From contig QCXZ01000075.1 of the NCBI GenBank assembly GCA_025024175.1, positions 5,456,001 to 5,520,000 of the forward strand: a DNA stretch of 64,000 bases. The letters run 5' to 3'. Below, piece by piece: positions 1 to 53,597 of the stretch. The notes under the pieces were generated by a model. It was not told the origin of the DNA. It did not search any database and saw only the letters and a program-made list of their open reading frames with translations. Each line of letters begins with the position of its first letter. Within the stretch, counting starts at the first letter, position 1. Source of the DNA: Rhyzopertha dominica (taxonomy: Eukaryota > Arthropoda > Insecta > Coleoptera > Bostrichidae). A program made the translations under genes and the position numbers.

Positions 1-358
1 AATTAAATGTATGAATGTTAAACATACAAAATTATACTTTAATAATACTAATTGCTGATTTGCCTTAAAAGATAGAGAGAAAACAAAAAAAGGACTAACA
101 CTAACTAGTTGGGAACGACTTTCGAAATCAGTTATAGAATTTAGCTAACCGCGTTAGTCAGATGGAAAATGAGCGGTTGAACGGCTACGAATGGAAATTG
201 CTTAAAGGAAATGTAAGCAATCCGTCTGTTCTCTCTTAGGTAGATTGATGAAAAGTAAAGCCGCTGACTGGTATGCCTGGTTTTCAGTGTAATTTAAGAA
301 TTTCCAAAAACTTAAAACTTTTAAAAACATTTAAGAGACATGCTAGTATTATACTCAC

Positions 359-586
359 TCTTTGAAAAATTTTGCCAGTTGACTCCGTTATATCACGAAA
401 CGCGACGACATCTGATTCCTTAAAATGTTTCTCACAAATATTCAGAGTTTTGCCCAATACTAGGTTAGGATAGGCATCAGTGACTGCTCTTACCCACTGT
501 TCACGAGTCTTTTCATTTTGTGGCATTTGAAAAACAGTATAAATTGTTTCTTTAGTGCAATCTGGAATTTTGCACTTATTCGGCAT
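359..586 (-). CDS. THAP-domain protein, first coding exon (gene continues off the left edge)
   Basis: The ATG at 586-584 opens a 76-codon exon that is almost entirely a THAP domain, a C2CH zinc-dependent DNA-binding fold. Visible residues are the first zinc pair in CKIPDC, the W of EQWVRAV, and CEKHF supplying the last Cys and His. The exon ends at a good donor (gtgagt) just below position 359, in phase 0, so the rest of the protein lies left of position 1. The domain is clearly paralogous to the THAP exon at 14.3 kb, with the same spacing and the shared words CKIPDC, REQW, AYPNL and GK. It is transcribed away from the PRDM9-like gene. The target DNA and partners cannot be read from one exon. 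THAP domains are shared by host regulators and P-element transposases; the clean splice structure favours a host gene. Confidence 0.75.
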
Positions 587-919
587 AATTAGGTATTTCT
601 TTAAAATTAAAATATATATCACTTCAGTTTCTAAAAAAATGTTTGTTTGTAAACTCAAAACTCACGTGGGTTTTATGCAGGGTTGACAGGTTGCTGCCCA
701 CAGTGCCAGTACTTTGCAACTACCAGGGTTGCCAACACTGCAATATGGTATTAGTACACACCACCTCTAAAATTCCTCATTTTTTTCCAAATTCTCCAAA
801 ATAATAATACCGTTTAATATATAGGATTTTAATTGGTTAAAAGTTTTTTACATTGTTATTAAGATGTAATAAAGTGTATTGATAATCGTTTTAACATTTC
901 AAAAGAAAAATTACTATGG

Positions 920-1036
920 GACAGTTTCGCTTCTCTTTGTTAAAGTTGATGTTAGCTAAAATTAATCCAGTAACCAAGACAACACCTTAAATTGAAGTAA
1001 GTGATTGGCTTAAAATAGAGAACAGAAACCGGCCCT
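920..1036 (-). repeat. MITE family A, copy 1
   Basis: A roughly 115-bp sequence in inverted orientation relative to near-identical copies at 13.61-13.76 kb and 60.09-60.22 kb. The ends read approximately AGTTTCGCTTCTCTTTG and AGAACAGAAACCGGCCC. They are imperfect inverted repeats of each other, as expected of a small non-autonomous DNA transposon. This is the most diverged of the three copies. Confidence 0.7.
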
Positions 1037-1594
1037 ATATCACCATAAGTGCTATTTACCTCTGTATATTCTTGTAGAAACAACAGGAACTTTGCAAAAA
1101 TTATTTATTTAGGATTTTTATAACATTAAATAACTAAACAGCACAGTTGTCAAACTAGTATTATGTGCACTATTTATGCAATGGATAAAATTGGAGGTAC
1201 GGTTTAAAATTATAAAATGCATGAAAGTAAAATTCCTCAAAAACTTCACAAATTCTTCAAGATCAGGTCAAATTACTTAAGTTTTGAGAAATTACACACA
1301 AATCGGCAAAATATTAAACAGAAAATAGAAAATTAAAAATTTTGTGCAGAGCTCTGGGATTCAATTATTATAACAAATATTAAAAACTGCTTTTCATATA
1401 TTTTAGATTTCAATTATTCAGAAGACGATACATTTAAGCAATCGTTTTTACCACAGTTTAGATTTAACTATTATAGTTTGAGAACTCATCCGAGTCCAAG
1501 AACGCTTCTTGATTCAAGTTATATAATCACTAAAGCCCTTGAAATTCACCTCCAGAATGTACAGGATGTCCTCGAAATACATCGACAACGTTTG

Positions 1595-2130
1595 ACAGGT
1601 AATAGAAAATGCAATTTTAAAAACTTTTTTGAATAAAACAATTTCCGAAAACGATTGATTTTTGATATACAGGGTGTTGAAACTGATTTTTAAAAAATGA
1701 TTTTCAAGACTATTCTTAAACTATAAAATATCAATTTCAATTTTGATGGGAATCTTTATGGCATAAGTTAAATAAAAAAATGTAATCGGGGGGTTTCTAA
1801 AGCACCGGTGATGTGCACTGGGGTAATGCACACCCCTCTTTTTTAATATAACAAAATAGACAAAACTAATAGTTTTGTAATCTCTAATCAATTCTAAACA
1901 AAACATGTCTTAAAATGACTCATTCATCCCTAAAAATTGATTTTTTAATTGAAAAACACTACACCGCCATTATTTTGTGAAATCACAAAAATGTTATTGA
2001 AACTGACAACGCTTAAAAAGTGGTAGAAAATACAATTTTAAAAACCTTATTTCGAATAAAAAATATCCAACAACGCTTTGTTTTTGATATACAGGGTGTT
2101 GAAATTGAATTTAAGAATATGAATTTTTTT
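1595..2130. repeat. Pair of diverged direct repeats containing a CAGGGTGTTGAAA motif
   Basis: A unit of about 110 bp near 1600-1710 recurs near 2020-2130. Both carry GTAGAAAA/ATAGAAAA, AATTTTAAAAAC, then TTTTTGATATACAGGGTGTTGAAA. The ACAGGGTGT word is a common terminus of insect non-autonomous DNA transposons. No coding sequence is visible between the copies. Confidence 0.5.
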
Positions 2131-2279
2131 AATAGCTTCTCTTCAAATGGCTTATTGCAGTATGTGGAACAAGTTACCAACACCGAGCTGTGATCCAATA
2201 GTTCAAATGTGCAAAAATGTTGACTTATAGGTTGTAATAATGTAATGTACTTTTCTTTTAAATTAGTGCTCAAATTAGA

Positions 2280-2560
2280 GATGCAGTGATGTGTCTTAGG
2301 AATAGCAGAAGCCCAGATGTCTTTGGAATAAATACTGTTGTTGTAAAGTCAATTATAGATGTACATAATTATATCCCACTATCTAATCTTATAAATGCTT
2401 GCATCAAGACAGGGGGTTTTCCGATTGCTTAAAAAGAGCGGTGGTAATACCGGTATTTAAAAAAAAGGGGGACTCCAACGACACAAATAATTACAGTCCA
2501 ATATCACTGTTACCTGTCTTTATTTGTTTTGTAACAGTAACTTTCAAGGGACATTGAGAT
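2280..2560 (+). pseudogene. Non-LTR retrotransposon reverse transcriptase remnant
   Basis: In translation the segment reads like the N-terminal fingers region of a Jockey/CR1-type reverse transcriptase: SPDVFGINTVVVKS, then INACIKTGGFP, then after a frameshift VVIPVFKKKGDSNDTNNY and SPISLLPVF. These match the family pattern of a P-G-hydrophobic block, an F/P block, then P-I/V-F-K-K-G and NYRPISLL. A stop and a frameshift show it is dead. Confidence 0.7.
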
Positions 2561-2593
2561 TGTGAATTGCTATTGCAAAGCCTGGTACTTACG

Positions 2594-3345
2594 GCCTAAT
2601 GGGGTATAAGACACTTTTCTGGAAAAATATGTTTTGTGAAGCTAAAGGTATGCTAATGCTAATTCCAAAATATTTCTTTCGTCTGTGGAGTTTTAATGCC
2701 CTAAAAAAATTATTGTAAATTGGCGGGAGACAACGCCCCTTTTTAAACGCGGCCAGTACATACGTCATCATGACGTATGTACTGGTCGAACGTTTGACAA
2801 CAGAGAAAGGCAATCAGCTGACGGACATGCCCGTAACCAATGACAAATGACAGCATGACAGTGAAAGACGAAAGTGCACGTGTTGTGTTTGGTTATGTAT
2901 AGTACTCGCAGATTTTGCTATTTGTATTTTGATGTTGTGATCAATACGCGATAAACTGCTCGAATCAGTCTTTATGCTTCCTGATGATATTTTGCCTACA
3001 AACTTAGAAATGGTATTAATACACCCAGTTTTAGACAACTCTAAACTACCCATTAGTTTAGGTTATGTTTACATAAACATATGATCATGTAAATAAACTT
3101 GGCAAGGACATACAATGATGCCAAGTGTGCAACAGACTGAATACGATTGGCTGGAAAGAAGCGCGAATTCGGCAAGTCATTGAAACCAGGACGAACGGAC
3201 CCTTCAGATTTGTAATTGTTATAAACTATTCCTATATAATTTTTTTAAATAACTGATGGTTGTATTGGGATAGTAGAGCAAAATAGAAACATTGTAAGTG
3301 ATTGTCTTGTTCAGTTTCAATAGTTGTCTTATACCCTATTAACTG
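2594..3345. mobile_element. Putative non-autonomous DNA element with short inverted ends and an internal palindrome
   Basis: AATGGGGTATAAGACA near 2597 is mirrored by TGTCTTATACCCTATTAA near 3328-3345, giving about 16 bp of imperfect terminal inverted repeat around 750 bp. No transposase is recognisable inside. A perfect 16-bp-arm palindrome lies at 2753-2785. Target-site duplication was not convincingly seen. Confidence 0.4.
2753..2785. repeat. Perfect palindrome, 16-bp arms with 1-nt centre
   Basis: The left arm CCAGTACATACGTCAT is followed by one C and then its exact reverse complement. It sits inside the putative non-autonomous element at 2.6-3.3 kb, so it may be part of that element's subterminal structure. 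Confidence 0.85.
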
Positions 3346-3519
3346 AAGACAGAGGTAACATGTTTTCATCTCAACAGTCATCAAAAAACAAAACAACTTC
3401 AAGTTATGTCAAATAACATAATTTTTAAACATAACTTGTCGCCAGAATATTTGGGGTCTTTCCAAGATACGTCTCTAATATACAAGAAACATCTAGAAAA
3501 TATCAGTAAAATTACAGAC

Positions 3520-3810
3520 TAGAAATAACATCCTGTATAAACTTGCTGGTACAAGTTGGAGTGCAAATGCAAGTGTACTCCGTACTTCTGCAACTGCCTT
3601 GCCTTATAGCACTGCTAAGTAGTGCCGTCCTGTCTGGAAAATTAGTCGTCACACAGGTAAAATTGACATTCAACTAAATACTGCAATGCGACTAATCACT
3701 GGAACAATTAAGTCAACTTCATTACCTTGGCTTCCGATTCTTTCAAACATTGCTCCTCCGGAGATTCGTAGACTTGACAAAAGTATTAATCAGCTCCTAA
3801 TGAGTTTCTG
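3520..3810 (+). pseudogene. Non-LTR retrotransposon reverse transcriptase C-terminal remnant
   Basis: In translation this reads LAGTSWSANASVLRTSA, then LPYSTA, a stop, PVW, and later LNTAMRLITGTIKST, LPWLPILSNIAPPEIRR. This is the characteristic C-terminal stretch of a LINE polymerase family in which W-G-A, LCYSTAEY, P-V-W, T-G-T and LPVLSNIAPP are conserved. It carries internal stops and no other part of the element is present. Confidence 0.7.
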
Positions 3811-4084
3811 ATTTCCCAAGATCAGATCAGCTTAAATTGTCATTTGCACTAAGGAAACAGACTCATGTTTATATTCATTTGTTTTAAATATGATACAATG
3901 TAATATGTTTAAATCTACTATCAAGAGATTAAAAGGAATAAAACAAGAACTATTACAATTTATTAAGAACACATTATTTACTTTAACACAAAACATTAGA
4001 ACAGCGAATTATTATAATAATTTTAGAGTACTATAGAATACAAAATAATAGGATAAAATTGAAGATGAGTTTGTATTTTGTGCT
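3810..4084. other. 3' flank of the PRDM9-like gene
   Basis: AT-rich sequence. It includes an AATAAA on the minus strand around 3958-3963, about 120 bp past the stop codon of the PRDM9-like gene, which is a plausible poly(A) signal. Confidence 0.4.
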
Positions 4085-4739
4085 TTAAATTGAGTGATAT
4101 TTTTCATTATGATGTTTTAAATGATCATTTCGTATACATTGATAATGACATTTCAAACATTTTAATGGTTTTTCTTTTTCATGGGTGTACATGTGTGTTT
4201 TTAACTTACTTTTTTGTGTAGTGGAATATTGACATTTGTTACATTTATGTAAATATTTTTTTGTGTGCTTATCATTTTCATGTGTTTTGACATTATTAGC
4301 ATGTGCACTGCTATAATCACAATACTGACACTTGAATGGCAGTTCAACATTATTATGTTTATACATATGTTGTTTTAGTCGATCATTTCGATTAAATCCT
4401 TTGTTACAAATGTCACAAATGAATATAAATTTATGCATATCGTGAATTCTTTTATGTGTCTTTAGATTTGGAGTGTAATATGTTGTATATGTACACTGAT
4501 CACAAAAATATTTTTTCATTTTTGCATGTTTGGCATTAATGTGCCTTTTGAGATTACCTTTTTGTGTACACTTATAATTACAATAATCACATTGGAAGTT
4601 TTTAATTCCATCGTGTACAAACATGTGCTGTTTGAAATACGCAGAATTGTTTGTAGAGTAGTTGCAAATGTTGCATTTATGTTTCTTTGCACCCTCAACA
4701 ACATTTTTATTCACGTCTACTTTTTCCGCTCCAATATTC
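4085..4739 (-). other. Zinc-finger array exon of the PRDM9-like gene
   Basis: The last exon starts after the acceptor tttgtttttcag and joins exon 5 in phase 2 (AA plus G makes Lys). It encodes seven C2H2 fingers in tandem. Each begins C-x2-C: CNIC, CDYC, CDQC, CDIC, CQYC, CNKC and CLKC. Each has a His pair 3-5 residues apart. The helix contact positions differ from finger to finger, so this is not a recently homogenised minisatellite array of the kind seen in mammalian PRDM9. The stop is TAA at 4085-4087. Confidence 0.9.
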
Positions 4740-7700
4740 CTGAAAAACAAAGAAAAAAATTATTCGTCTAAAACTATAAAATACAGCATTGTATAATACA
4801 CATATTGGGTAAGAGAATAATTTTACTTTCAGTTAAATTCATTTACTTGTGTCATAACTAATTACACTCGGATGGATGGATTTTTATTGAAAGATAATAA
4901 TAATTTTAAGATAATAATTAGTCAAATACAACAGACTTCAGTAGCTCAAAATATAGCACAAGTTTCTATATTATGCTAACATATTAAGCTTATACTTTCA
5001 TAGAATATGAAAAAGTGCAATATATTTTGATATAACAATAAGACATATTCCATCTTGCTTAAATTTTTTTTAAGAGTAATTTTATAATGTATATCGCAAG
5101 ACTACAAATAAAGTTAAAATGGCGGCACATAAATACTATAGGCGATCTTAGAAACACATTCAATCGACCAGTGAAATAGGAAAAGTTTAGGTTCTGACGA
5201 GAACTGACATGGGGCACAGCGTAGTTAATCTTCTCAAGCAACCAACTACAATCTAAATTATGGTTAACTAGATTATATGATAAAAATTTAAGAAATTTTC
5301 TTTGTACATATTCGAGTTGATCTATATAACATCTATAAATAGGAAACCATATTAACGCCACTTATTCTAGCCTAGTACGAATAAGAGAACAATATAATAA
5401 TTGTAAAGTGCGTAAATTAGTGAATTCCTTTCTATTTCTATAAATAAAACCATAAGAATTGTATGATTTTGCATTTATATCTAAGATATGGTCATTAAAC
5501 GTAAACTTTTGATCAAACACGACCCCTAGATCTATAAACTTATTGATTCTATTTAGGACTTCATTACTGATTTGATATTGATAAAGTAATATATTATGTC
5601 TACGAGTGAACGAAAGCACATTGCATTTTGGAATATTTAAATCTAACCTATTCAGAAACAAATTGGCTGAAGCAGGCCAAGTTGGTCACAGTGGGCCTCT
5701 TGGGCATAAAGCCATGCTGAAATGGTGATATAAAATTATTAATACATTTGGCGATGTTCTTATGCATTAAAGATTCAAAGACTTTGGCAAAATTACAGAT
5801 GAGTGAGATTGGCCAATAGTTTTCAATATTATTGATGTCACCTTTTTTTAATATAGGACATACATAGGTTGACTTCCAGGTCTCTGGAAATTTTGATGTT
5901 TGAAATACAAGGTTGAAAATCTAATACAGAGGAGTTGTAAAAATTGAGGCACAGTTTTTTAAAAGAAAACTAGGTATTCCATCTACACCAGCAGTTATTG
6001 AATTCTTTAGTGCATTTAAAATTTCATTTGCAGTAAAGTGATTCAAGGAGACAGGCATTGGATAGATTTTTGTTTTTAAGTTAAAAGTAGTGTCAGATTA
6101 ACGAAAAACACTAACATAATAAGCTTAATTTCATAGATTATAATAATAATAAAGTTTATTTCCAGCGGACCAGGGCGGTCCATAGTGGAAGCATACACAA
6201 TGATACACTAAATTTAAAACAATATGGCAAAAATTAACATAGATAAGAAATCGAGTTTAAAATACATTAGTGGAACACAGAATAGAATTCATTATAGAGA
6301 CGGGTTTAACTACAACTACTAAAATAAAGTCATATTATAAAAATTCTGCATCAAATTTCATTATCACTTCTTTTTTAACTTTGGCATGACAAAATATATC
6401 AAATTTGGAATCAGCAATAGAATTATTATATAAACAAAAACAAGACAGCAAAGCGGAATTAAAATGGTGGTGTGTATGGGGTATAAAATAATAAAATGTT
6501 AAAGAGCACCTACTGTTTAGTCAAGGCACCACAAACCTAACCTGGCACGTTAGAATAGCATCATCAATACATCCCCCAATGACTTTTTGCAAAAATATCA
6601 GACTGCATACAGCTCTGCAAGCATTGAGCGAGTTCTCACCAATAGCGTTAAGAAGGATTTTTTGACCACAATGCCCTACAGGATATGAACTGAATTTCTT
6701 CAGATAAAATTAATGGAGATACTCGCCGGACGATATTGTATATAATATAATTCAATAATTGGGTGACCCGGCTGGCTTGGGCATTAAAATATAGTGAAGC
6801 TAGTCGTGCTAATTGTTTATATTTCGGGTCTCTTGTGACCCTTTATCAAAACAACTACAAATTAACAAAACCAGTATTATACAAAAACAACAAATTCTTG
6901 TAAAAAAACTTACAACACAAAGCCAACAATAAGAAAGCAAAACTCGATATTCTCGCACAACGTTCTTCTACTGTATATCTGTGGCAACTTCACTAAAAGG
7001 AAATATAAACCAAAAATCCAAAAAAACCTTTTATAATTTTGTGATATGACATAATTTCAAATTTTTGACAAAAGTATTGACAACTATTACAAACAAAACG
7101 CGACATCCACCAAACTGCATACAGAATGGAAATACCAAAAAAAAAAATATTTAATAATAACGACAAAAAACCCACAGTATGAGAGAAAAAAATATAATAA
7201 AAATAATGATTATAATTGAAAAAAAAGCAAGCATAACTAATCATGAAATGAATCCACACCTAATCAGGATGTAACTGTGGTTTTCGACACGAGTCTAATT
7301 GAAACAAATATTTATATATAATACTTAAATTGTCTACGTCTGATTTTTTATTAACAGTATTATCACGCTCATATACACAACACATCTCCATAAAAAGTCT
7401 TTTTTTGTAGTTTTTTTCAATAGTTAATACTTTGGGATTGTTAAAATCAAAATTGTGACCTAGGTCCACTGCGTGTTGAGCAAGAGCACATCTCTGGGGT
7501 CTAAGTTTTGTCGCTTTTGTGTCCAGTTATCCTTTGCCTAAGCAATTGTTTTGATTGACCGATGTATACTTTTTGGCAATCAAAGCAATTTATAAGATAA
7601 ACGATATTATGAAGATCCAGTCTATCTATACTGTCTTTTAATTTAGAAAAGAGAGATGAGTTAGTTTTAACATTGTAACACGCTATCTTTATATGTTTAA

Positions 7701-10700
7701 CAGACCTAAATATTTTCTTAATTTTTGTTGTTAAGGATGTAATACAAGGAAAAGGTGTAAAAACCACCTGTTGATCACTAGGGTCTAAGTTAGGTACATT
7801 TGTGATGGTAGATCTTCGTATTTCACTAAACAGAAGGTTCCTAAGAAAAGGTTTCGGATCTTCATAATATCGTTTATCTTATAAATTGCTTTGATTGCCA
7901 AAAAGTATACATCGGTCAATCAAAACAATCGCTTAGGCAAAGGATAACTGGACACAAAAGCGACACAAAACTTAGACCCCAGAGATGTGCTCTTGCTCAA
8001 CACACAGTGGACCTAGGTCACAATTTTGATTTTAACAATCCCAAAGTATTAACTATTGAAAAAAACTACAAAAAAAGACTTTTTATGGAGATGTGTTGTG
8101 TATATGAGCGTGATAATACTGTTAATAAAAAATCAGACGTAGACAATTTAAGTATTATATATAAATATTTGTTTCAATTAGACTCGTGTCGAAAACCACA
8201 GTTACATCCTGATTAGGTGTGGATTCATTTCATGATTAGTTATGCTTGCTTTTTTTCAATTATAATCATTATTTTTATTATATTTTTTTCTCTCATACTG
8301 TGGGTTTTTTGTCGTTATTATTAAATATTTTTTTTTTTGGTATTTCCATTCTGTATGCAGTTTGGTGGATGTCGCGTTTTGTTTGTAATAGTTGTCAATA
8401 CTTTTGTCAAAAATTTGAAATTATGTCATATCACAAAATTATAAAAGGTTTTTTTGGATTTTTGGTTTATATTTCCTTTTAGTGAAGTTGCCACAGATAT
8501 ACAGTAGAAGAACGTTGTGCGAGAATATCGAGTTTTGCTTTCTTATTGAGTTTTGCTTTCTTATTGTTGGCTTTGTGTTATAAGTTTTTTTACAAGAATT
8601 TGTTGTTTTTGTATAATACTGGTTTTGTTAATTTGTAGTTGTTTTGATAAAGGGTCACAAGAGACCCGAAATATAAACAATTAGCACGACTAGCTTTGCT
8701 ATATTTTAATGCCCAAGCCAGCCGGGTCACCCAATTATTGAATTATATTATATATATATAGTGAACTTTCTGAGGACATTTTCAAGCAGGTCAATGTAAA
8801 TCTGGTAGTTAGGTTTCCAAACAATTGCACAATATTCAAGTCTAGATCTTATCAGTGAGTAAAAGAGAAGCTTTATACATTCGACGTGAAATCTTTGGTA
8901 TTGCGAAACAGAAATCCCAGTTGGCACATAGCGACATCACAGATATGCACTACATGACAAACAAAGGTGAGACCAGTATCCAATATCACACCCCCAAGTC
9001 AGAGACTTGATGACAATCTTCTAAGGGAGTGCCTTTAATGTTGTAAAAATATCGAATGTGAAGAAGTTTATCTTCTTGCATTTACTTACATTAAGCTGTA
9101 AACCATTAAGACCACGCCAGCCCTACCAAAAAGTCTATGTCCCCCTGCAGTGCCAAACAATCATCAGTACTCCGCACAACAGTACAGATCTTGAGATCGT
9201 CCGCATACATGTAGGCATTGCAAGATAGTTTTTGAAATTACGTCATTGTAAAAAGTTATAAACAATAAGGGACCCTAATTTGAACCCTGAATTACACCAC
9301 TGCTCACTCAGTAAGAGTGGGATCTGACCCCATGTTACTCAACATACTGCCTCTTTCCTTCATCGCAGAGTAAATCAAAGCAATGAGACTCTCACCCAAT
9401 CCAAAGTTACATAGCTTTTTGAAGAAGTGCAATATATTTTGATATAACAATAAGACATATTCCATCTTGCTTACGCTTAATAGTAATTATACAGGATGTA
9501 CCTAACTTTGATGTCATAATTTCTAGTGCATGCTCCTGGCATTCATTAAGATTGAAGAAGGAAACCATGCTGACAATGCAGAATGTGGTCTACTAGACCA
9601 GTAAAAAATTTATTACATTAGAAGAAATCCATTTTTACATACTGATAAAACCAAAACAAATAATTACTTCATTAATAAAAAGATAAATAGAAAGGAGTTA
9701 TTGAAACCCTCAGATAGTAAGTTATTATTAAGATGCAAAATATACTTACTTATTTTTGCAGTGTTTCTCATGTTCCATTAAAAACTCTTTGCAGCTCACA
9801 GTTGTTGAACAATATTTACATTTAAAAATATCTCCTTTGTACTCCTTATTATTCAAAGCCTTCTTCTGGCACCTCAACATATGCTTTATTTGATATTCTT
9901 TGTCAATAAATCCAAAACAGCAGTATTCACAACTGTAGATTTTCTGTAATTCTTCCATCTGTGGTTTAAAGTACAGCTCAACAGCCAATCCCAATAATTT
10001 TGCAAAACTTTTTCCATAATAAACCAACAGCTCATCTCCTGGATTTATTAGTCTTGCAGTTCGGTAATATATATTTGCATTATACTGAAATGCAATCAGG
10101 TTTTGTTCGCTACTGTGATTCGCACAATTGACATAACGTAACCAGTTTGACTTGGACTCATCAGCACCATCTAGTAAACCATATCCTCGAAGCTGCGGAA
10201 TAATTTATAATTAATAATTTCTTTTTTTTTACAAGAAAAGTTCATAGTTGAAATTTTCGTCTTTTATAATGCCTACAGAATTATTCAACAGAAACATATG
10301 TTTAAAGATTGTAGGACATTTTTTGTTTAACAGATTTAAGAGTAATTTTCATTAACATTAATGCATAAGTTCCACTTTCATACTATAAAAAGGAGCATGA
10401 AAATGTACAGGTACCGTCAGATATTTGTGCAGATGAAATCAGCACAGCAATAGGTGTGCAGTAGCCCAGGTCACAAACCACTTATAGGAACTCGTTTTGG
10501 GCCTAGACTTTGGAGCAAACAAATACTTAGAATGCGAGCAGTTTGCTCTTTCTTTTTCGGCTTTGCTACAGACAGAAACGTAGACTTCAATTTGGGCAAG
10601 GTTAAATCACTATGTGACGAATTTTTCAATACATTTGCTACACAAGATTGAGAATCATAGTGCCTATCTGCCAAAACAGCTGAAAATTTTTTGTTGCTAA

Positions 10701-12080
10701 GAAACCTTTACTGGACAGTATAATAATCAGTTTGCAAGCCGACAGCGATAGTGAAAGTGACTTTGATTCGACTGATTCGGACAGTTCCGATATTGAACAT
10801 TTCTTGTAGGTGACATTATATAGAGTATAAGTATAAGCATGTGTGTATGTATGTACACATCTAATGATAGTACATTCGATCTTAAAATATGAACACCTCA
10901 TTATGTGTTGAATGGTAATGGCAATTAGGGCTAAGTCGTCTCTGTATCAGAAACGTTGTTGCGATATGCTATCCTTGTCTATCCGAGTACATTCTCACTC
11001 CCCCGTCTATGCAGTTATCTGCAAATGTCACCAACACAGTAGTTAAATATGTAGGAGCAAAATCTTACAATTAGGTATAGTTCAAAGGCTGCTTACTTAA
11101 TTCAAAAACTGCATGCAAGTTACATCTCAGATTTATGTTCAAGCATAAACATTAATGACTTTTGGTTTTATGTTTCACATTTGATACTTAAAACATATGA
11201 ACACAGAAATACTACTCAACAAATATATTATGGTACAAATTAATATTTAACTCAACAGGCAACAACATCAACAAATAGCTTATCATACCATCCAGCTGTA
11301 GGATGAATTATTATACTTCTTTATCAGTGTCCCTTCATATGGACCAAATCTTATATCCTTCGGCAAACTTTTTATTGCAAAAACTCCATATCCATGTTTC
11401 GTAGAATTTCTAATTTCTAAGCAATCTTTCGGCACAGTCAGTTTGGCCCTATTCACAGTACCCAGTGGAACATTCTCATCTTTGATGTGATACAGGATGC
11501 CACACTTAGGACAAAAATCTAAATACACTCTCTTACATTTTTCACAATCTGCAACAAATCACAACCTGCAGATTTGAAAAAAAAACCCATCTGACTTACA
11601 AATGTAACGGTCACTTGATGGTTCCTCTTCTTCAGTGTAGTTAACACGAGCAATGTTACGTTTAGGTCTTTCGGAGACTGTCAGGAAAAAGGAAAACACA
11701 AAAAGGGATGTTAAAATAGAGCAATGGATTAAAAGGAAAGCTATACCTTGGGTGGAGGTTGGGATTTTTTTAATTCTCGGTTCATAATTTCCTTTATTGT
11801 TACCAACTCGTTTACGTTTCTGCTTATTGGATTTCATTTGAATAGATTTTTCTCTTTGCATGAAAGACGGCATTAAGTCTTCAGCATTAGGTACTAAAAA
11901 AAAATTCAAGCAATAATTACCTCATAATTAAACGTGAAAGTCATTACCATGGTCTTTAAAGGCTAAATAATTTTTGTACTGGTTGACTGCTCTCGTTTGC
12001 TCGAGTTTACCCATTTCATTCCAGTCTTTATCGGTGAAATATAATTTCACTGCCTCAATTTCTTCATCCTCCATGTCCAT
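4085..12080 (-). CDS. PRDM9-like: PRDM9-like histone methyltransferase: KRAB-like, SSXRD-like, PR/SET and C2H2 zinc fingers
   Basis: I built six exons from splice sites: 12080-11948, 11893-11747, 11677-11600, 11548-11289, 10192-9750 and 4739-4085. Phases match at every junction, giving 1716 nt and 571 residues. Exon 1 encodes a KRAB-like segment (YFTDKDWNEMGKLEQTR). Exon 3 holds a basic-then-acidic stretch in the SSXRD position (ERPKRNIARVNYTEEEEP). Exon 4 has a zinc knuckle (YCEKC, FCPKC) and enters the SET domain (GYGVF, RFGPYEGTL). Exon 5 completes SET with WLRYVNCA, EQNLIAFQY, IYYRTAR and GDELLVYYG, followed by C2H2/C2HC fingers at SCEYC and KCKYC. Exon 6 carries seven C2H2 fingers. In vertebrates PRDM9 trimethylates H3K4/K36 at sites bound by its fingers and places meiotic crossovers. 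Unlike vertebrate alleles, these fingers are diverged from each other and lack TGEKP linkers. Activity and role here are inference. Confidence 0.85.
5013..5061 (+). repeat. Left copy of a 49-bp direct repeat bounding a 4.4-kb TE block
   Basis: The 49 bases from AAGTGCAATATATTTTG to CCATCTTGCTTA recur exactly at 9425-9473. The left copy abuts an oligo-T run that would be the 3' A-tail of the minus-strand LINE starting at 5062. The pair therefore looks like a long target-site duplication. Confidence 0.8.
5062..6100 (-). mobile_element. Jockey/CR1-type LINE fragment, copy 2 (3' half)
   Basis: On the minus strand the fragment runs from the RT fingers (FPETWKSTYVCPILKKG, then NIENYWPISLICNFAKVFE) through a long gap to FIDLGVVFDQKFTFNDHI, SYGFIYRNRKEF, LLYCSLIRTRLE and IDQLEYVQRKFLKFLSYNL. 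It ends in an A-rich tail at 5061-5069. These are the usual C-terminal motifs of Jockey-like ORF2. One in-frame stop falls between RTRLE and ALIWFP, and other stops lie upstream, so the copy is inactive. It lies in the last intron of the PRDM9-like gene in the same orientation. Confidence 0.75.
6738..8755. mobile_element. Penelope-like element arranged as a 2-kb inverted repeat
   Basis: The left arm (about 6738-7618, minus sense) and right arm (7856-8755, plus sense) are near-identical reverse complements around a 237-bp spacer. The minus-sense copy extends through the spacer and encodes the PLE C-terminus: FTPFPCITSLTTKI, then a GIY-YIG endonuclease start (IVYLINCFDCQKVYIGQS, RQRITGHKS), then a conserved tail (DLGHNFDFNNPKVLTIEKNY). 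The right arm repeats only the portion from the endonuclease onward. The right arm also has a small tandem duplication of GAGTTTTGCTTTCTTATT at about 8530-8565. A partial inverted second copy is typical of Penelope insertions. The RT domain is absent. Confidence 0.85.
8640..8700 (+). ncRNA. Degenerate hammerhead-ribozyme-like motif in the Penelope terminal region
   Basis: TTGATAAA, GGGTC, loop ACAAGA, GACCC, then GAAAT reproduces the order CUGAUGA, helix II, GAAA of a hammerhead core with two substitutions in the first box. The same sequence is mirrored in the left arm around 6800-6850. Hammerhead motifs are known in the terminal repeats of Penelope-like elements. With the C and G of CUGAUGA altered, this copy is probably not catalytic. 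Confidence 0.35.
9425..9473 (+). repeat. Right copy of the 49-bp direct repeat
   Basis: An exact match to 5013-5061. It lies at the 5' boundary of LINE copy 1 in the PRDM9-like intron. Confidence 0.8.
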
Positions 12081-13240
12081 TATTTGCACTATTTTATCTC
12101 AGCCTTATCACACTTCAAACCATTAACAGTTTGAATAGGACACACCAAACACATAAAACACTTCAGAACTTCATAATAACTTTAAATCAGTNCATAATTT
12201 AAATGGACTAACAGTAACGGTTTCTGTTCTNATGTAAAATGGCGTCAAACGTTTTCTCTTTTAGCTATTCACCAAAACAATTGAATGTCACAATTTTACT
12301 GCTCTATTATTTATTTCAGAACTTTACACTGGACACTTGGTCATTCCGCTATTAGATGGCGCTTGCGGTTGATACTCTATGTAATTATAATATTCTGTGG
12401 ATCATATATTTCAAATAGGTATAGAAAAAAATGAAGATGACTGAAAAAATACGAATTATAATTTTATACCATTATACCTACATTGTACCATCTATTGCTT
12501 GTAATTAAATTTATTCATAGATTATGTGTACATAACAGCAGTTCTTATAACTCATAACACCAATCATAAATTTAATGCATCAATTTCGTTTATTCGTTTT
12601 GCTATAAATATTGCGGTTCATATTCTTCTTGAGAATGAATAAAAATGTGCAGGAAATGACCCTCCCTGTTCAGTGTCTGTTTTAACTATCAATATCAAAA
12701 CGTTTGTCTGCTGTGCTTACCAGAGACCAAGAATGTTAAAAATTGTCTCTACTTAAAATATTGGATTCCTTTTCAAACTTAAAGGTAGAAGCAATAAAAT
12801 CTTTGCCACCACTTTACAAATGCCGTCCCTTTTCAGTTGCAGGAAATGGAAAATAATAAAATTTCAACCAGCTTGTTGTGGATGCGTAGAACATGTAGGT
12901 ATAAAGTCTGCCTTTGACTCTTAAGGCACAATAATGCAGTTCTGCCTGCGAGTGCTTTAGTAAATTGACATTATTTCTTCTTGTATAAGGTGTATATAAA
13001 GTAATATATAATCCTGTGCACTTGCAACTTTTTTATTACAGTGATTTATTCATTCTGTATAAAGTACACCGAACCAGCAAACGAAAACTCAATTTCATTA
13101 CTCTTAGCTTACCCTTATGGTATTTAACGTAATAAGTGCAATGGGACATGCCACCAACTGTTTTGTTTGCATGTTTTTATTCTTGAACTTTTCGTCATCA
13201 TAAGTTCTAACCAACATCATTATTTTTTGTTCTTTGCCAC
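12081..13240. other. Upstream region of the PRDM9-like gene, no gene seen
   Basis: AT-rich, with two Ns near 12.2 kb. The ATG of the PRDM9-like gene is at 12080 and no obvious TATA box was found. The region includes the gtacaccgaacc area near 13.06 kb, without recognisable coding or repeat signatures. Confidence 0.4.
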
Positions 13241-13905
13241 GACATATTGTAAACCTTGTTATTGTGACTTCTGCTACCTTTGACGAGCATTTAGATAATT
13301 TAGACAGGCTTTTAACTAGATTACCATCTGCTGGATTCATTTTGAGGGTTAAAAACTGTTTTTCTAGACAGCAAATGATGTTTTTGGGATATATTGTTGA
13401 CAAAAGGCGGGGGAAAAGGGAGGAAAGTTTGTTGATGTTGGGAAGAACTGGAATAGCTGGCTTTCCAGGCACTGAAGGAAAAGTTGATGAATACCAAATT
13501 ATTGTACCATCCACGAGACCACTGCAGCTATAGCCTAAGTACTGATGCTCCAGACGTAGGTTTGGTGGCACATCTATTCCAGGTTGTGAACGGGGAGCGT
13601 AAATCCATTACGCCGGTTTCTCTTCTATATTTTAAGCTAAAATCAACTCTATTTTTAAAATTTAAACCAATCACACACCTCAATTTAAGGTGTTGTCATG
13701 GTTACTGGGTTGATTTTAGCTAACATCAACTTTAACAAAGAGAATAGGAACCGACCAATTGTGTTTGCTAGCCGGCTGGTGATGGATCGAGAAAAGCGCT
13801 ATGGTATTAATGAACGAGAGGCACTTGCTGTGGTATAGGCGCTGGATAAATTTAGAATTTATTTGATGCGACGACAATTTACAGCGTTTGTGTGGTACTG
13901 AACGT
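13240..13905 (+). pseudogene. Ty3/gypsy retrotransposon RT-RNase H remnant
   Basis: The RT palm-to-thumb region is readable in plus-sense translation: VIVTSATFDEHLDNLDRLL, RLPSAGFIL, then FLGYIVD. RNase H follows with STDAPDVGLVAHLFQVVNG, and after an inserted MITE it resumes as VFASRLVMDREKRYG, INEREALAVV, ALDKFRIYL. There are frameshifts and a stop where the family has Trp (VV-stop-ALDKF). No LTRs, gag or integrase were found nearby. Confidence 0.8.
13613..13756 (+). mobile_element. MITE family A, copy 2, inserted in the gypsy RNase H
   Basis: The ends CCGGTTTCTCTTCTATA and AGAATAGGAACCGACC are imperfect inverted repeats, with inner AGCTAAAATCAAC/GTTGATTTTAGCT boxes. The insertion splits the RNase H reading between NGERK and VFASR, so its boundaries can be placed from the host element. 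This is the best-defined copy of the family. Confidence 0.8.
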
Positions 13906-14305
13906 ATTCACAAAGTTCATCAAACTTTATGCCCTCAAAAGGGTTGCCATAAACCGTTTGTTTCTAAGCAATCTTAGGCTTTTGATTTTTATCAAAAATT
14001 TTTGAAACCCTCAAAATTTTTTACTTTAATCATGTTTTCTGGGATATTCTCTAATGCTATTTGTTTTTTGTCGAAGAACTGGTCTGTAAAATGATATGAG
14101 GCCCCAATTTCGGCTCAAAGTCCCTACATAACGATGAATTACAAAAATTCCTCCTATGTTGTACATATCTATATACTTTAAAAAATAATCCCTACGAGTG
14201 GGGACAAATCCTTACGTTTGGCAACATAGGTAGTGGTGGAAAATGGACCAGTGGTGGCGGCGGTAGTTCACCCTTTTTAAAAAGTGTTTTATCATTAGTG
14301 GAGAT

Positions 14306-16134
14306 ATGTCTCACTACTGTAAAATACCGGACTGTCCGAATGAACTAAATCAGGTGGTGTTTAAAATACCCAGACGTAAAGAAATGCGTGAACAATGGTT
14401 GAAAATAATTCATAACGCGTATCCTAACCTACGCATTGGAAAGAGTTTCACCGTTTGTGACAAACATTTTAAACCTTCAAATATCAATGCATATGTAACT
14501 GACGAGTGTGGAAAGATTATTACACAGGTAAATTTTGTAATTAGTCGTAAAAAATATTAATTGTGAAAAATTTTTGTTATGTAATAAGTTTAGGTGTCAC
14601 AGCCTCATTAAATAAGTATAAAACGAGTTTTCTAATGATGTAGCTTCATAAAAATGAATTCTCATTCTTTTTTATTATTTTTAGAAAACCTACGCACAGG
14701 TTAATAAGGATTAAAACATTTTTATGAACATTTCAGTTACCATCAGTAAAAAGAGTGCGCCTTAAACGCAATGCTGTTCCATATTTTGCAGTCCAGAGAA
14801 TTTCAGCCAGCGATTCAACAGCAATGCCTGTTGTACAACAAGAGCCGCAACCAAAATCTAGCGGGATTTCAAGATCACATCGTGTATATACGAAGGCATC
14901 AAAGGCAACTGTTTCGAAGACGGATTTACCAATAACTTCGGTAATTACCTATGCAGAATGCTAAACCTATCAAAATGAAATTTGATATAAGGGTGTGTCA
15001 AGCAAAAATTTAGACAAGTTGGGAACGATATTGTTTATTTAATGCACAATAAAAATAATATTATTTTGGCAAAAACACATCTAAGTTTAGTGTCTAATAA
15101 CATGTTCAGTTCCATACATCAGCAGCTTGCCTATCTTTAGTTTTGACCCTAGTCATTAGTCTTTCAAAGTGACCCACCCATATGAAATTGCAAAGTTTGG
15201 TTTGTATTCTGGTTTTCAACATGGCATAAACTTTTTGTTTTAGTTGATACCAAAACCNTTCANNGGATTGTAATTGTGGCACATTTGGTACATTTTCTGA
15301 GCGAGGTCTATATGTTATGTTGTAACGTTCAAAGCATCAATACTGCCTCTTTAATAATGCAATGTTGCCATATCTGACAAAAACAAATAATGACCATCAT
15401 ATTTTTCAATAAAGGGCAAAAGTCTCTTTAGCCAGAAGGGGCTATGAATGCTGCTGATCTTCCTTTATCCAATATAAAATAAGATGGTGAGAAATCAATT
15501 ATCAGAAGGCTTCAAATATTTTTCTCATAAGTTGTGAAGACATTTTTTCTAGGCTTTTAATTGTGATTCACCATACTTAGGTGCTAATTTTCGTTTTCTC
15601 AGTATTATCTCTGTTTTCTTTAAAATTTAACAAAAATACTCGTATGAAATTTTTACTTTTCTGACAAGTGTCGTGTAAGATTGCCCCGTTTTTCCAACAG
15701 CCATCTTTCATGTTGTTGCCTTTTACGTTCTGACATTTTTCTTGGTTTTCTTCCACACCCTATATATAAACAGCTGCTGAAAAATATAATTTTTTGTGGT
15801 ATATTTATGGAATTAGCTTGACAATCGTTTCGGATAGTTACTGATAAACATTGTAGAACAGCTCAAGATTGTAAAATGTCCTGCAAAACATAGTCAGACA
15901 CAGTTTTTATAGGATGAAGTAATGGAAACCACCATAGAATACATCAAACCGGAACTGGTTGAAATCAAACAGGAAATTATTGAAGACATGGAAGCCAATG
16001 CAGATCAGCTAGAAGTAAAACTAAAAACAGAACCCAGCGATTATGCTTACGATGAGGAATTGTATGAACCACAAAATGTAGATGGCTGTGACAGGGTTCC
16101 CCTTGACAAAATCAAGATGGAAGGTTTTAACTAA
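14306..16134 (+). CDS. THAP-domain protein, complete three-exon gene
   Basis: The exons are 14306-14527, 14737-14940 and 15913-16134, all phase 0, with acceptors atttcag and tttttatag. The product is 215 residues. Exon 1 is the THAP domain (CKIPDC, REQWLKI, AYPNL, CDKHF). Exon 2 starts with the VRLKRNAVPYF word that typically closes a THAP domain, followed by a Ser/Thr/Gln-rich linker. Exon 3 is strongly acidic (PELVEIKQEIIEDME, KLKTEPSDYAYDEE), resembling an activation or protein-interaction tail. No coiled coil is obvious. An AATAAA lies about 50 bp past the stop. The 972-bp second intron holds a dead mariner-like transposase. The protein is probably a nuclear DNA-binding regulator; its targets are unknown. 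It is paralogous to the THAP exon at 0.4 kb. Confidence 0.8.
14990..15780 (-). pseudogene. Tc1/mariner-superfamily transposase remnant
   Basis: On the minus strand the region reads PRKMSERKRQQHERWLLEK near the N-terminus, then a DDE-like C-terminal half: PFIEKYDGHYLFLSDMATLHY, YRPRSENVPNVPQL and a VYAMLKT block. This is the D-x-A-x-x-H-Y, then P-R-S-x-N-x-P-N-x-P-Q-L arrangement of an insect mariner-like family. The copy has many stops, frameshifts and Ns. Both edges carry an AGGGTGTG word in inverted orientation, which may be remnant ends. Confidence 0.6.
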
Positions 16135-16389
16135 GTAACTCGGTACATTCGTATCTACTGTGATATTAATTTAAATTGGAATAAAAAATTTTGATCAAAT
16201 GAACTGTAGTTTTAATTTAATAGAAAATCTTTCACGCATATTATTTCAAGGATGTTTTCTCTAATATATTTCCATGCATGTACTCGGCGAGAGATATTAG
16301 TAAGGTTTTTTTTTTCTATAGCAGATAATAATAGTAAAACACTAGTTTATGATCCTGTTTAAATATTATGTAATGCTAGTACAGATTTT

Positions 16390-17570
16390 TCTGCATTTCT
16401 ATTGTTTACATGATACATATGTCCTTTGAATCTAATATTTGCATTACAGTTTGTTTATCCAATGTACTTTTTTGGGCAGTTACAGCTTTAATTTCGTAAA
16501 TTCCAGATTTGTTTAACATATCTTCTTTATCCAGGGTGTTGCCTAATAAATATCTTAATGTGCAGTTACCAAAAGCAAGATTAATATTAAATTTTGAAAT
16601 TTATGTTGTTTTGAAGGATGGTATGTAAATTTCTATGGAGTTTTCTTTTTCAGGACTAAGACGTGTGTGACATGCAAATTTAATTTATATTTATGTTTTT
16701 CTAATAACTTGGTGATCATTTCTATTTTGAATCTGTTTGAGTTGGCTAAAGTATAATTGTGTCGGTGTTCTGTAGATATTAAACGTAATTCTAACGTCCT
16801 TTCTTAATACTGGTATTATTAAATCTAAAAGTGGCAATTAGGAATCGTTTTCTAGTTAAATTTATTGACTGGTGTAATAAAAATAATTTTTGTGTAAATT
16901 ATTAATATCAAAGTTATTGTCTGTTATGGCAAAATCATCGTCTACATATCTATACCATAATATCGAAAATTTATTTGTATATTTTAGATTTTTTCCAGGT
17001 AGCTTAAGAAAAGGTTAACTAAGAAAAGTGTAAGAGGGTTTCAATTGCCAATCCAAATTTTTGTTTATAAATTTTTTTATTAAATGTAAATGTGTTTTGT
17101 TCGATGCACAGTTTTGTTAACTACAAGTATTCATCAATGACTGTTTTATTGAGTTTATTTTGGTCAAGAGAATCTTCCAATAATTCTAAAGCTTCAGTTA
17201 CTGATATGCTATTGAACAATGATTCGACATCAAAAGATATTAATCTATGATTACATTTAATTTCAAAATTTTGTAATTTATCTATTAAATCTAAAAAATA
17301 TTTGATCGAACAGTCGTTATTTAATGTTAATTGACTGAATTCATTATCAACTACTGTGCTAATTGGTAATTTGGAACTTTTACATTTGAGACTATGAAGC
17401 AAAATTTGTTCCCTGGTTTATGAATTTCTGGTAGAGCATAGCTATCTGATATAAACAGATTTTGCAACTCTAACTTGTATTTAAGATTACTATTAATTAA
17501 TAAACTGCAACTGTCAAAAGTATCATTAACCTTTGTTATAAATTTTAAAAATTAATTATCTAAGGAACTG
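16390..17570 (-). pseudogene. Penelope-like element: RT and GIY-YIG remnant
   Basis: Minus-sense translation gives the RT fingers/palm (CNHRLISFDVESLFNSIS, EALELLEDSL), the catalytic box WYRYVDDDFAI near 16.93-16.96 kb, and further downstream a GIY-YIG start (SGIYEIKAVTAQK). The order RT then GIY-YIG identifies a Penelope-like retroelement. The copy is decayed by stops and frameshifts. It begins about 250 bp past the end of the THAP gene. Confidence 0.8.
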
Positions 17571-52589: not shown

Positions 52590-53597
52590 CCTGAAACAGG
52601 TGTCTCTGTCTGACAAATGAAACTAGTTTTGATTTAATAGAAATTATTCAAATGTCACTGACTTCTCCACTTTATTAAATATTAATTAGCAGAGCGCTTT
52701 CAGCCTTAAAAGGCCAGCGTCAGTGCCTTAGTATTAAGTAAATAAAACTAATACACTATAAAAAATATAATAAACATACGAAAGATGCATTATTACAGAT
52801 CAAACTAATTAATTAAATTTATTTTATTAAAATTAGATATTAAATTAATGCTTCACTTAAAACAGCACATTAATCTTTTGTTGAAATCCAAAATTCGGTC
52901 AACTCCATGCCGGAACATTAGTTTTGAAAGCGTTATCGCAGGATAACCCAATTAGATTCTCTTCTGCAGAAGTAAATTCGAGTGGAGCACCGGTATTAAA
53001 AGAATTTTCAATTCATGTAACCTTGTCGATATTCTCATTTTTAAAGTATTTCTCAAACCAATTGTTAAAATGTACCAAACTTATGTGCGGTGAACATAAA
53101 CAATGCAAAAGAAATAAAATATTTTTATTAAAAACACTAGAAACTGGAAGTATTGTTTAATTGTTAACTTTTTTTATCCTTGTTTACTGAAATAATATGG
53201 TCTCTGCATTAAAGCTTCTCCTTTAAAGATTTATGAAAGATACCACAGGAACCTACAATAGTGTTCTGCAGTTCATTGAGTACACAAAAAATGGAAAGAA
53301 AATGGAACATACTGAATTTATTACTAGGCATTGTTGCATAAATAGTTATCTCCAAATAGATACTTTTCTGCTAATAAACTTATGAACTACGACAAAAGGA
53401 TCTAAAGCTGTTGACAATACTAATAACAGAGGATTGTGTGGAAGATCTCAGAGGTTTAAAAAACAGCAGACAGGAATTTCTAAAGGTGAAACTTTCTACT
53501 TTCTAGCAAAAAACTAACATAACCAAACCGAGCCCTACATTAAATATTCTATAACATAATATTAAGTAATATCAATTTATCATGTATGTTTACGTAC

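What the first reader, a model, noticed from the sequence alone, without database searches (positions are those of the whole stretch)
4085..12080. A complete PRDM9-architecture gene in an insect
Six frame-compatible exons encode, in order, a KRAB-like segment (YFTDKDWNEMGKLEQTR), an SSXRD-like stretch, a zinc knuckle, a PR/SET domain with WLRYVNCA, EQNLIAFQY and GDELLVYYG, and a C2H2 array. This full arrangement defines PRDM9, known best as the vertebrate determinant of meiotic crossover sites. Domain identity is from motif recognition. That it methylates H3K4/K36 or directs recombination here is inference.
Basis: partly seen in the sequence, partly recalled or inferred. Interest (0 to 1): 0.88.

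Follow-up and report, generated by a model that had tools for sequence, protein, structure and literature searches.

The report
Fast-evolving PRDM9 gene, probably a beetle's
An insect genome, probably a beetle's, carries two intact copies of PRDM9, the gene that in mammals chooses where chromosomes exchange DNA, and the copies differ mainly at the amino acids that should touch DNA, so whether this system works outside vertebrates becomes testable in an insect.

Summary
On the minus strand, six GT-AG exons (12080 to 4085) give an uninterrupted 571-residue protein: ancestral KRAB, SSXRD-like stretch, zinc knuckle, PR/SET, two C2HC fingers, seven C2H2 fingers. The PR/SET domain groups with PRDM9 and PRDM11, apart from the other PRDMs sampled (97/96). 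KRAB matches a non-insect PRDM9 profile; SSXRD is only suggestive.

New here: the same genome holds a second intact, inverted copy 1.2 Mb away. KRAB to SET is constrained (dN 0.0105, dS 0.101). In the fingers 16 of 27 comparable DNA-contact positions differ, against 0 of 55 other core positions; contact dN is about four times that dS: a PRDM9 signature. The only CW zinc finger match found belongs to a ZCWPW1-type gene, PRDM9's usual partner.

Against: the array is not homogenised, the ZCWPW1-type protein has altered presumed histone-binding residues, and expression and activity are unknown. Insect PRDM9 homologues are already in databases and mentioned in print: a new member of a known kind, unusually testable.

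The parts
11948..12080 (-). Exon 1: start Met and ancestral KRAB-A (YFTDKDWNEMGKLEQTR...)
   Evidence: splice model; aKRAB profile 17.7 bits over residues 12-58, E 6e-4
11747..11893 (-). Exon 2: end of the KRAB region (PSFM) and basic linker
   Evidence: kept in the second copy
11600..11677 (-). Exon 3: SSXRD-like stretch (ERPKRNIARVNYTEEEEPSSDRYI)
   Evidence: weak profile match 13.9 bits, E 0.011, best shuffle 12.6
11289..11548 (-). Exon 4: zinc knuckle (C121, C124, C132, C135) and first half of the PR/SET domain (FGPYEG, Y190)
   Evidence: C121, C124, C132 invariant in 9 aligned homologues
9750..10192 (-). Exon 5: second half of PR/SET (WLRYVNCA, EQNLIAFQY, Y249, GDELLVYYG with Y265) and two C2HC fingers
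   Evidence: similar C2HC pairs in the Anoplophora and Callosobruchus homologues
4085..4739 (-). Exon 6: array of seven C2H2 fingers with irregular linkers
   Evidence: one other near full-length DNA match in the genome plus a 58-base piece; contact residues diverge strongly from the second copy
10016..10018 (-). Codon of tyrosine Y265 (equivalent of PRDM9 Y357 by alignment)
   Evidence: alignment to PRDM9; numbers Y276, 341, 357 as printed in a passage of PMC7494361
3850..12958 (-). Block duplicated, inverted, at own-genome C75:4251045-4258246 (second PRDM9 copy, exons at C75:4251928-4258077)
   Evidence: blastn of window 1-20000 against the 20 kb of L009+L010: five pieces, 72-96% identity; exon structure
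6739..8754 (.). Inverted-repeat insertion in intron 5 with a GIY-YIG frame (Penelope-like, name recalled); no match in the second copy

Best explanation
The locus is a PRDM9 (PRDM7/9) orthologue of an insect, probably a beetle, present as two functional-looking copies after a duplication. Shown: complete exon structure, PRDM9-clade SET domain, catalytic tyrosines, ancestral KRAB, finger array, a second intact copy, strong constraint from KRAB to SET, and excess amino-acid change at the DNA-contact positions of the fingers. Inferred: in germ cells the fingers bind specific DNA sequences, the SET domain puts H3K4me3 and H3K36me3 on nearby nucleosomes, double-strand breaks follow there, and the ZCWPW1-type protein helps repair them. 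Erosion of target sites by biased repair would then favour new contact residues, as in vertebrates.
For: Six-exon model. PR/SET clade and PDB ranking PRDM9 148 bits, PRDM11 109, PRDM1 73. KRAB profile. Second copy intact with all splice sites. Exons 1-5 dN 0.0105, dS 0.101; exon 6 contact codons dN 0.405; 16 of 27 contact against 6 of 121 other finger positions changed, Fisher 5e-10; 0 of 55 non-contact positions within the 12-residue cores (16/27 against 0/55 Fisher 3e-10); contact nonsynonymous rate above the pooled synonymous rate, Fisher 1.2e-5. One zf-CW match in the genome, joined by inferred splicing to PWWP, whose database relatives are CW-PWWP proteins, several named ZCWPW1-like; the best, from Trypoxylus, comes from a species that also has a PRDM9 homologue, P0048. 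Arrays of Eumeta, Maniola, Hetaerina, Harmonia and Tachypleus homologues are homogenised with variation focused on contacts.
Against: No expression, binding, methylation or crossover data. The window's array is not homogenised: share of within-array diversity at contacts 0.34 (second copy 0.33) against 0.235 by chance, like a four-finger mayfly PRDM1 control at 0.33. Callosobruchus, Amblyomma and the barnacle P0020 arrays are not homogenised either. SSXRD match marginal. The ZCWPW1-type protein has Tyr and Gln where CW domains usually have two Trp (cage positions recalled), its CW half scores higher with MORC3 than with ZCWPW1 (37 against 27 bits), and of the named species with such a protein only Trypoxylus also appears in the PRDM9 list. 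Contact codons have dS 0.19 on 16 sites, which would put their own dN/dS near 2; sites within a finger are not independent. The test compares paralogues, not species, and was not ranked against other duplicated finger genes of this genome.
Confidence: 0.6

Rival explanations
1. It is a PRDM9 orthologue by descent but not a recombination determinant: a sequence-specific methyltransferase that follows fast-changing targets such as transposons or satellites, as KRAB or ZAD finger proteins do, and contact residues diverge for that reason.
For: Array not homogenised; transposon frames in and around the gene and its copy; contact-focused divergence is known for other duplicated finger genes (recalled). 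Oliver 2009 proposed satellite DNA as PRDM9 target (author-summary passage).
Against: KRAB to SET kept with dN/dS about 0.10; a ZCWPW1-type gene is present; in vertebrates fast contact evolution goes with the complete domain set, with one possible exception (PMC5519329 passage).
Confidence: 0.2
2. Ordinary divergence after duplication: the two copies came to bind different sites in one episode, with no continuing race.
For: Only one duplicate pair is available, and at dS 0.10 it could reflect one episode. Finger number and linkers are almost unchanged between the copies.
Against: 16 of 27 contacts changed with 0 of 55 other core positions is extreme; no finger of the window shares its four contact residues with any Callosobruchus finger, and several arthropod arrays are homogenised with contact variation.
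Confidence: 0.17
3. Assembly artefact: the second copy is an uncollapsed allele, or one copy is a pseudogene.
For: The second copy's exon 6 holds 3 of the 6 N in its 20 kb.
Against: Both copies lie on one contig 1.2 Mb apart in opposite orientation; homology ends at window 3850 and 12958 within the 20 kb compared on each side; intron 5 insertions differ; synonymous divergence is 10%; both frames are open.
Confidence: 0.03

Closest known systems
PRDM9 (Meisetz; PRDM7/9) of vertebrates
   Same: Order ancestral KRAB, SSXRD-like, zinc knuckle, PR/SET, fingers; SET clade; three catalytic tyrosines; contact residues change fast while the rest is constrained; ZCWPW1-type gene in the genome.
   Different: Array of seven unlike fingers with irregular linkers instead of a homogenised minisatellite; two C2HC fingers after SET; SSXRD barely recognisable; two copies in this genome.
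Insect and other arthropod PRDM9-like proteins in databases (Anoplophora, Callosobruchus, Harmonia, Papilio, Maniola, Hetaerina, Tachypleus)
   Same: Beetles, Lepidoptera and the window fall in one supported set of 14 rows, with a long-branched tick; KRAB found in Anoplophora and Brassicogethes, two of five beetle relatives tested.
   Different: Several have homogenised arrays; many models are partial, and Callosobruchus, Harmonia and Rhynchophorus gave no listed KRAB match.
Teleost PRDM9-beta
   Same: Unlike fingers, no concerted evolution in the array.
   Different: PRDM9-beta lacks KRAB and SSXRD and has substitutions at catalytic tyrosines (PMC5519329 passages); the window keeps KRAB and all three tyrosines.
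PRDM11
   Same: Next best solved relative of the SET domain (109 bits), inside the same clade.
   Different: Scores 40 bits lower than PRDM9; recalled to lack a C2H2 array and KRAB.

Membership tests
PRDM9 (PRDM7/9) | PR/SET domain of the PRDM9 clade | tested here: met
   (97/96, 34 rows)
PRDM9 (PRDM7/9) | N-terminal ancestral KRAB | tested here: met
   17.7 bits, E 6e-4, best of 5000 shuffles 11.2; Pfam's KRAB model not listed at E up to 1
PRDM9 (PRDM7/9) | SSXRD motif before the zinc knuckle | tested here: inconclusive
   13.9 bits (best domain 12.9) against best shuffle 12.6, E 0.011; Pfam not listed
PRDM9 (PRDM7/9) | Zinc knuckle | tested here: met
   C121, C124, C132 invariant across 9 sequences; aligned to PRDM9
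PRDM9 (PRDM7/9) | Three catalytic tyrosines of SET | tested here: met
   Y190, Y249, Y265 by alignment to PRDM9, same in the second copy
PRDM9 (PRDM7/9) | C-terminal C2H2 array | tested here: met
PRDM9 (PRDM7/9) | Excess nonsynonymous change at finger contact residues | tested here: met
   between the two copies only; not ranked against other finger genes
PRDM9 (PRDM7/9) | Homogenised array (concerted evolution), seen in many but not all PRDM9 | tested here: not met
   0.34 against chance 0.235, mayfly PRDM1 control 0.33; Oliver 2009 says the pattern is not universal (PMC2779102 section 9)
PRDM9 (PRDM7/9) | H3K4/H3K36 methyltransferase activity | not testable with these tools
   needs a protein assay
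PRDM9 (PRDM7/9) | Meiotic expression and placement of double-strand breaks | not testable with these tools
   no RNA or ChIP data
PRDM9-ZCWPW1 module | ZCWPW1-type gene in the same genome | tested here: met
   one zf-CW match found in 479 Mb (exon-by-exon search, split domains can be missed), CW plus PWWP after joining two exons, 8 CW-PWWP relatives; presumed cage residues altered

The most novel reading that the evidence does not exclude
PRDM9-directed recombination with its target-erosion race is an ancestral bilaterian system still running in insects: beetles, butterflies and damselflies place crossovers by a fast-evolving PRDM9 read by a ZCWPW1 protein, and in this insect two PRDM9 genes with different fingers work side by side.
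Probability: 0.45. Interest if true: 0.9.

Novelty: new member of a known kind. Interest (0 to 1): 0.64.

Why it matters
A 2025 paper leaves open whether PRDM9 was ancestrally involved in hotspots or gained that role later (PMC11703093, passage); a 2026 model speaks of a gain in, or before, the vertebrate ancestor (PMC13320716, passages). An insect that keeps the domain set, shows contact-residue selection between two copies, and has a ZCWPW1-type gene makes the question directly testable outside vertebrates, in animals related to species that can be bred in the laboratory.

Tried and rejected
Pfam KRAB and SSXRD models: no row at E up to 1, so custom profiles of non-insect PRDM9 were made. 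Other PRDM subfamily: rejected. Homogenised array: rejected for this gene. Third copy: none by protein search (best candidates only) or by finger-exon DNA apart from a 58-base piece on C3. Species: not identified; 'beetle' is inferred from the nearest tree rows by path (Callosobruchus, Anoplophora, Trypoxylus, Rhynchophorus) and the best ZCWPW1 relative (Trypoxylus); no protein listed is over 60% identical. A control pair of other duplicated finger genes in this genome is missing: one search had shown two weak finger matches beside the second copy, but one search found no finger frame of 90 residues there and I did not go on. SPO11 (PF21180) and HORMA (PF02301) searches never got an answer. 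Structure prediction was not run.

Literature searches for insect PRDM9. In these listings and in the passages and sections read I saw no report of contact-residue selection in an arthropod PRDM9. Only open-licence PMC papers were searched, no preprints, and supplementary tables (including Table S1 of PMC8835667) were not seen.

Full report
What is there. On the minus strand of the window, six exons between 12080 and 4085 join through GT-AG introns into a 1716-nt coding sequence without internal stops. The 571-residue product has an ancestral KRAB (profile match 12-58), a basic linker, an SSXRD-like stretch (about 92-120), a zinc knuckle (C121, C124, C132, C135), a PR/SET domain (166-274, Pfam PF21549 E 7.2e-35), two C2HC fingers (from 294 and 331) and seven C2H2 fingers (376 to 569). 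The 5-kb intron 5 carries a 2-kb inverted-repeat insertion with a GIY-YIG frame.

Is it PRDM9? Solved relatives rank three PRDM9 chains first (E 2.7e-42, 1.2e-40, 5.9e-39), then PRDM11 (2.7e-30), then PRDM1 (about 3e-19). In a maximum-likelihood tree of 34 PR domains the window lies with invertebrate and vertebrate PRDM9 and with PRDM11 at 97/96 support; PRDM1, PRDM5, PRDM12, PRDM14, a mayfly PRDM1 and the own-genome L004 PR gene lie outside. Four rows have long branches whose place the tool calls unsure (L004, tick, PRDM11, PRDM5). The smallest supported set with rows other than its own copy holds 14 rows: the window, its copy, six beetles, five Lepidoptera and the tick; the order inside is not resolved, so 'beetle' rests on nearest paths (Callosobruchus, Anoplophora, Trypoxylus, Rhynchophorus). 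The catalytic tyrosines align as Y190, Y249 and Y265. Pfam's KRAB and SSXRD models give no row at E up to 1, but a profile from 9 non-insect PRDM9 KRABs (4 from Mytilus) finds the window (17.7 bits), the second copy (19.5), Anoplophora (28.6) and Brassicogethes (16.5), against 11.2 for the best of 5000 shuffles; Callosobruchus (a partial model), Harmonia and Rhynchophorus were not among the rows shown, down to E about 1. The SSXRD profile, from 8 non-insect stretches, gives 13.9 bits, best domain 12.9, against 12.6 for the best shuffle.

A second copy. The assembly that holds the window (479 Mb, 138 contigs) contains one further copy found by protein search, on the same contig, 1.2 Mb away and inverted, at C75:4251928-4258077. 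All six exons, splice sites and the frame are kept; it has one extra residue in finger 6, ends two residues earlier and has three ambiguous bases in exon 6. The homologous block runs from window 12958 to 3850, with no further match at E 1e-10 in the 20 kb compared on each side except a short internal repeat piece.

How the copies differ. Exons 1-5: 354 codons, dS 0.101, dN 0.0105. Exon 6: dS 0.077, dN 0.063. Of 28 contact positions (-1, 2, 3, 6 of seven fingers) 27 can be compared and 16 differ; of 121 other comparable finger positions 6 differ (Fisher 5e-10). Within the 12-residue cores between second Cys and first His, 0 of 55 non-contact positions differ (16/27 against 0/55 Fisher 3e-10). 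The nonsynonymous rate at contacts (about 20 changes on 65 sites) exceeds the pooled synonymous rate (about 27 on 306; Fisher 1.2e-5). This looks like selection on DNA-binding specificity with the methyltransferase part held constant. Cautions: two sequences only, sites in a finger are not independent, the contact codons' own dS is 0.19 on 16 sites, and no other duplicate finger genes were tested as background.

Other arthropods. Protein searches gave 43 hits (E up to 1e-3) and 82 hits (E up to 1e-20). Among the 82, named insect homologues are seven beetle proteins from six species, five lepidopteran proteins and one damselfly protein; a mayfly PRDM1 is also listed. Identity between fingers at contacts against other core positions is 0.41/0.70 in Hetaerina, 0.35/0.85 in Eumeta, 0.10/0.76 in Maniola, 0.21/0.52 in Harmonia and 0.38/0.72 in the horseshoe crab Tachypleus, which means homogenised arrays with variation at contacts; Cydia (0.19/0.34), Callosobruchus (0.04/0.19), two Amblyomma proteins (0.15/0.24, 0.12/0.25) and the barnacle P0020 (0.10/0.21) are not homogenised, nor is the window (0.12/0.36); the mayfly PRDM1 control is 0.25/0.44. 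Baker's statistic, as I recomputed it on runs of regular 28-residue fingers, is 0.53 for Eumeta, 0.47 for Hetaerina, 0.34 for Tachypleus, 0.31 for Cydia, 0.18 to 0.32 for the barnacle proteins and 0.20 for the mayfly PRDM1; Harmonia, Maniola and the window have no long enough regular run. In Baker's table complete vertebrate PRDM9 span 0.33 to 1.0 and teleost beta genes about 0.16 to 0.21 (PMC5519329 section 10, part 1). On 17-residue cores the window gives 0.34 and its copy 0.33 (chance 0.235; mayfly PRDM1 0.33, Callosobruchus 0.32, Maniola 0.61, Eumeta 0.60). So the window's evidence is the divergence between copies, not its array.

The partner. In vertebrates ZCWPW1 reads the double mark that PRDM9 writes and co-occurs with it (PMC7494361, passages). 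The genome has one zf-CW match (exon-by-exon search). Its exon and a second one about 4.6 kb downstream join in frame, by my splice inference, into CW (E 3.4e-14) followed by PWWP (25.6 bits, at the cut-off). By sequence the CW half resembles solved MORC3 (37 bits) more than ZCWPW1 (27 bits), and the PWWP half NSD2. The whole finds 8 proteins among 13 candidates, all CW plus PWWP: two of Agrilus, two of Diabrotica, one each of Danaus and Trypoxylus (the best, 64%), two unnamed; several are named ZCWPW1-like. Of these named genera only Trypoxylus is in the PRDM9 list; whether the others have PRDM9 was not tested. The five beetle sequences have other residues at both usual cage tryptophans (here GLYV and KQR; Danaus keeps GLWV and RWR; cage positions recalled), so their reading of H3K4me3 is uncertain.

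Best account. An insect, probably beetle, PRDM9 orthologue, duplicated, whose finger specificity has been changed by selection while its enzymatic module is conserved. The likeliest cause is the role known from vertebrates, marking meiotic break sites; chasing transposons or a single episode of divergence after duplication remain open. Nothing here shows expression or activity.

Place in the literature. Fumasoni 2007 assigned three PRDM genes to arthropods (PMC2082429 passages). Oliver 2009 reports concerted evolution of PRDM9 fingers in a sea anemone, a snail and a polychaete, positive selection in the sea anemone and at one codon in the polychaete, and PRDM9 apparently lacking in Drosophila (PMC2779102 section 9). 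Lorenz 2022 reports ancestral KRAB-A in insects and mussels (PMC8835667 section 5; species not seen). Raynaud 2025 calls PRDM9 ancestral to all animals and leaves its ancestral function open (PMC11703093 passages). So the gene is a new member of a known kind; I found no report of contact selection in an arthropod PRDM9 in the ten searches named under Tried and rejected.

Noticed in passing
own genome C75:4257426-4258077 (L010): The second copy's finger exon holds 3 ambiguous bases (N) in 652, against 3 in the rest of the 20 kb; two fall in finger 6, one of them in its -1 contact codon. They could be heterozygous sites.
   Followed up: partly
window 6739-8754: Two-kilobase inverted repeat with a GIY-YIG frame (Penelope-like, recalled) in intron 5, without a match in the second copy.
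   Followed up: partly
own genome C3:8606139-8606196 (L021): 58-base, 83% match to part of the PRDM9 finger exon in a transposon-rich stretch: perhaps a relic of another copy.
   Followed up: partly
P0020, P0023-P0026, P0034-P0040, P0072: The barnacle Amphibalanus amphitrite has 13 PRDM9-like database proteins (some are named isoforms), which suggests a lineage expansion.
   Followed up: no
P0001, P0004: Brassicogethes aeneus has PRDM9 modules in two proteins with the same longest contig length; one model fuses two SSXRD-SET units.
   Followed up: no
P0070: Damselfly Hetaerina PRDM9 homologue with about 11 near-identical fingers varying at -1, 3 and 6, much like a mammalian array.
   Followed up: partly
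P0032: Moth Eumeta homologue has a homogenised array but Leu in place of the third catalytic tyrosine.
   Followed up: no
P0014, P0022: Reed frog Hyperolius riggenbachi proteins named PRDM9-like, one with a homogenised array, although frogs are often listed as lacking PRDM9; contamination not excluded.
   Followed up: no
P0083, P0084, P0086, P0087, P0089, L018: Beetle ZCWPW1-type proteins have other residues (Y/F, and Q/Y/F/L) at the two usual CW tryptophans while the butterfly Danaus keeps both.
   Followed up: partly
window 47479-48075 and 51705-52622, minus strand: A cysteine-rich frame without a Pfam match and an F-box frame, possibly one Emi1/Rca1-type cell-cycle gene (name recalled).
   Followed up: no
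window 284-661 (-) and 14267-14560 (+): Two THAP-domain frames, one on each side of the PRDM9 gene.
   Followed up: no
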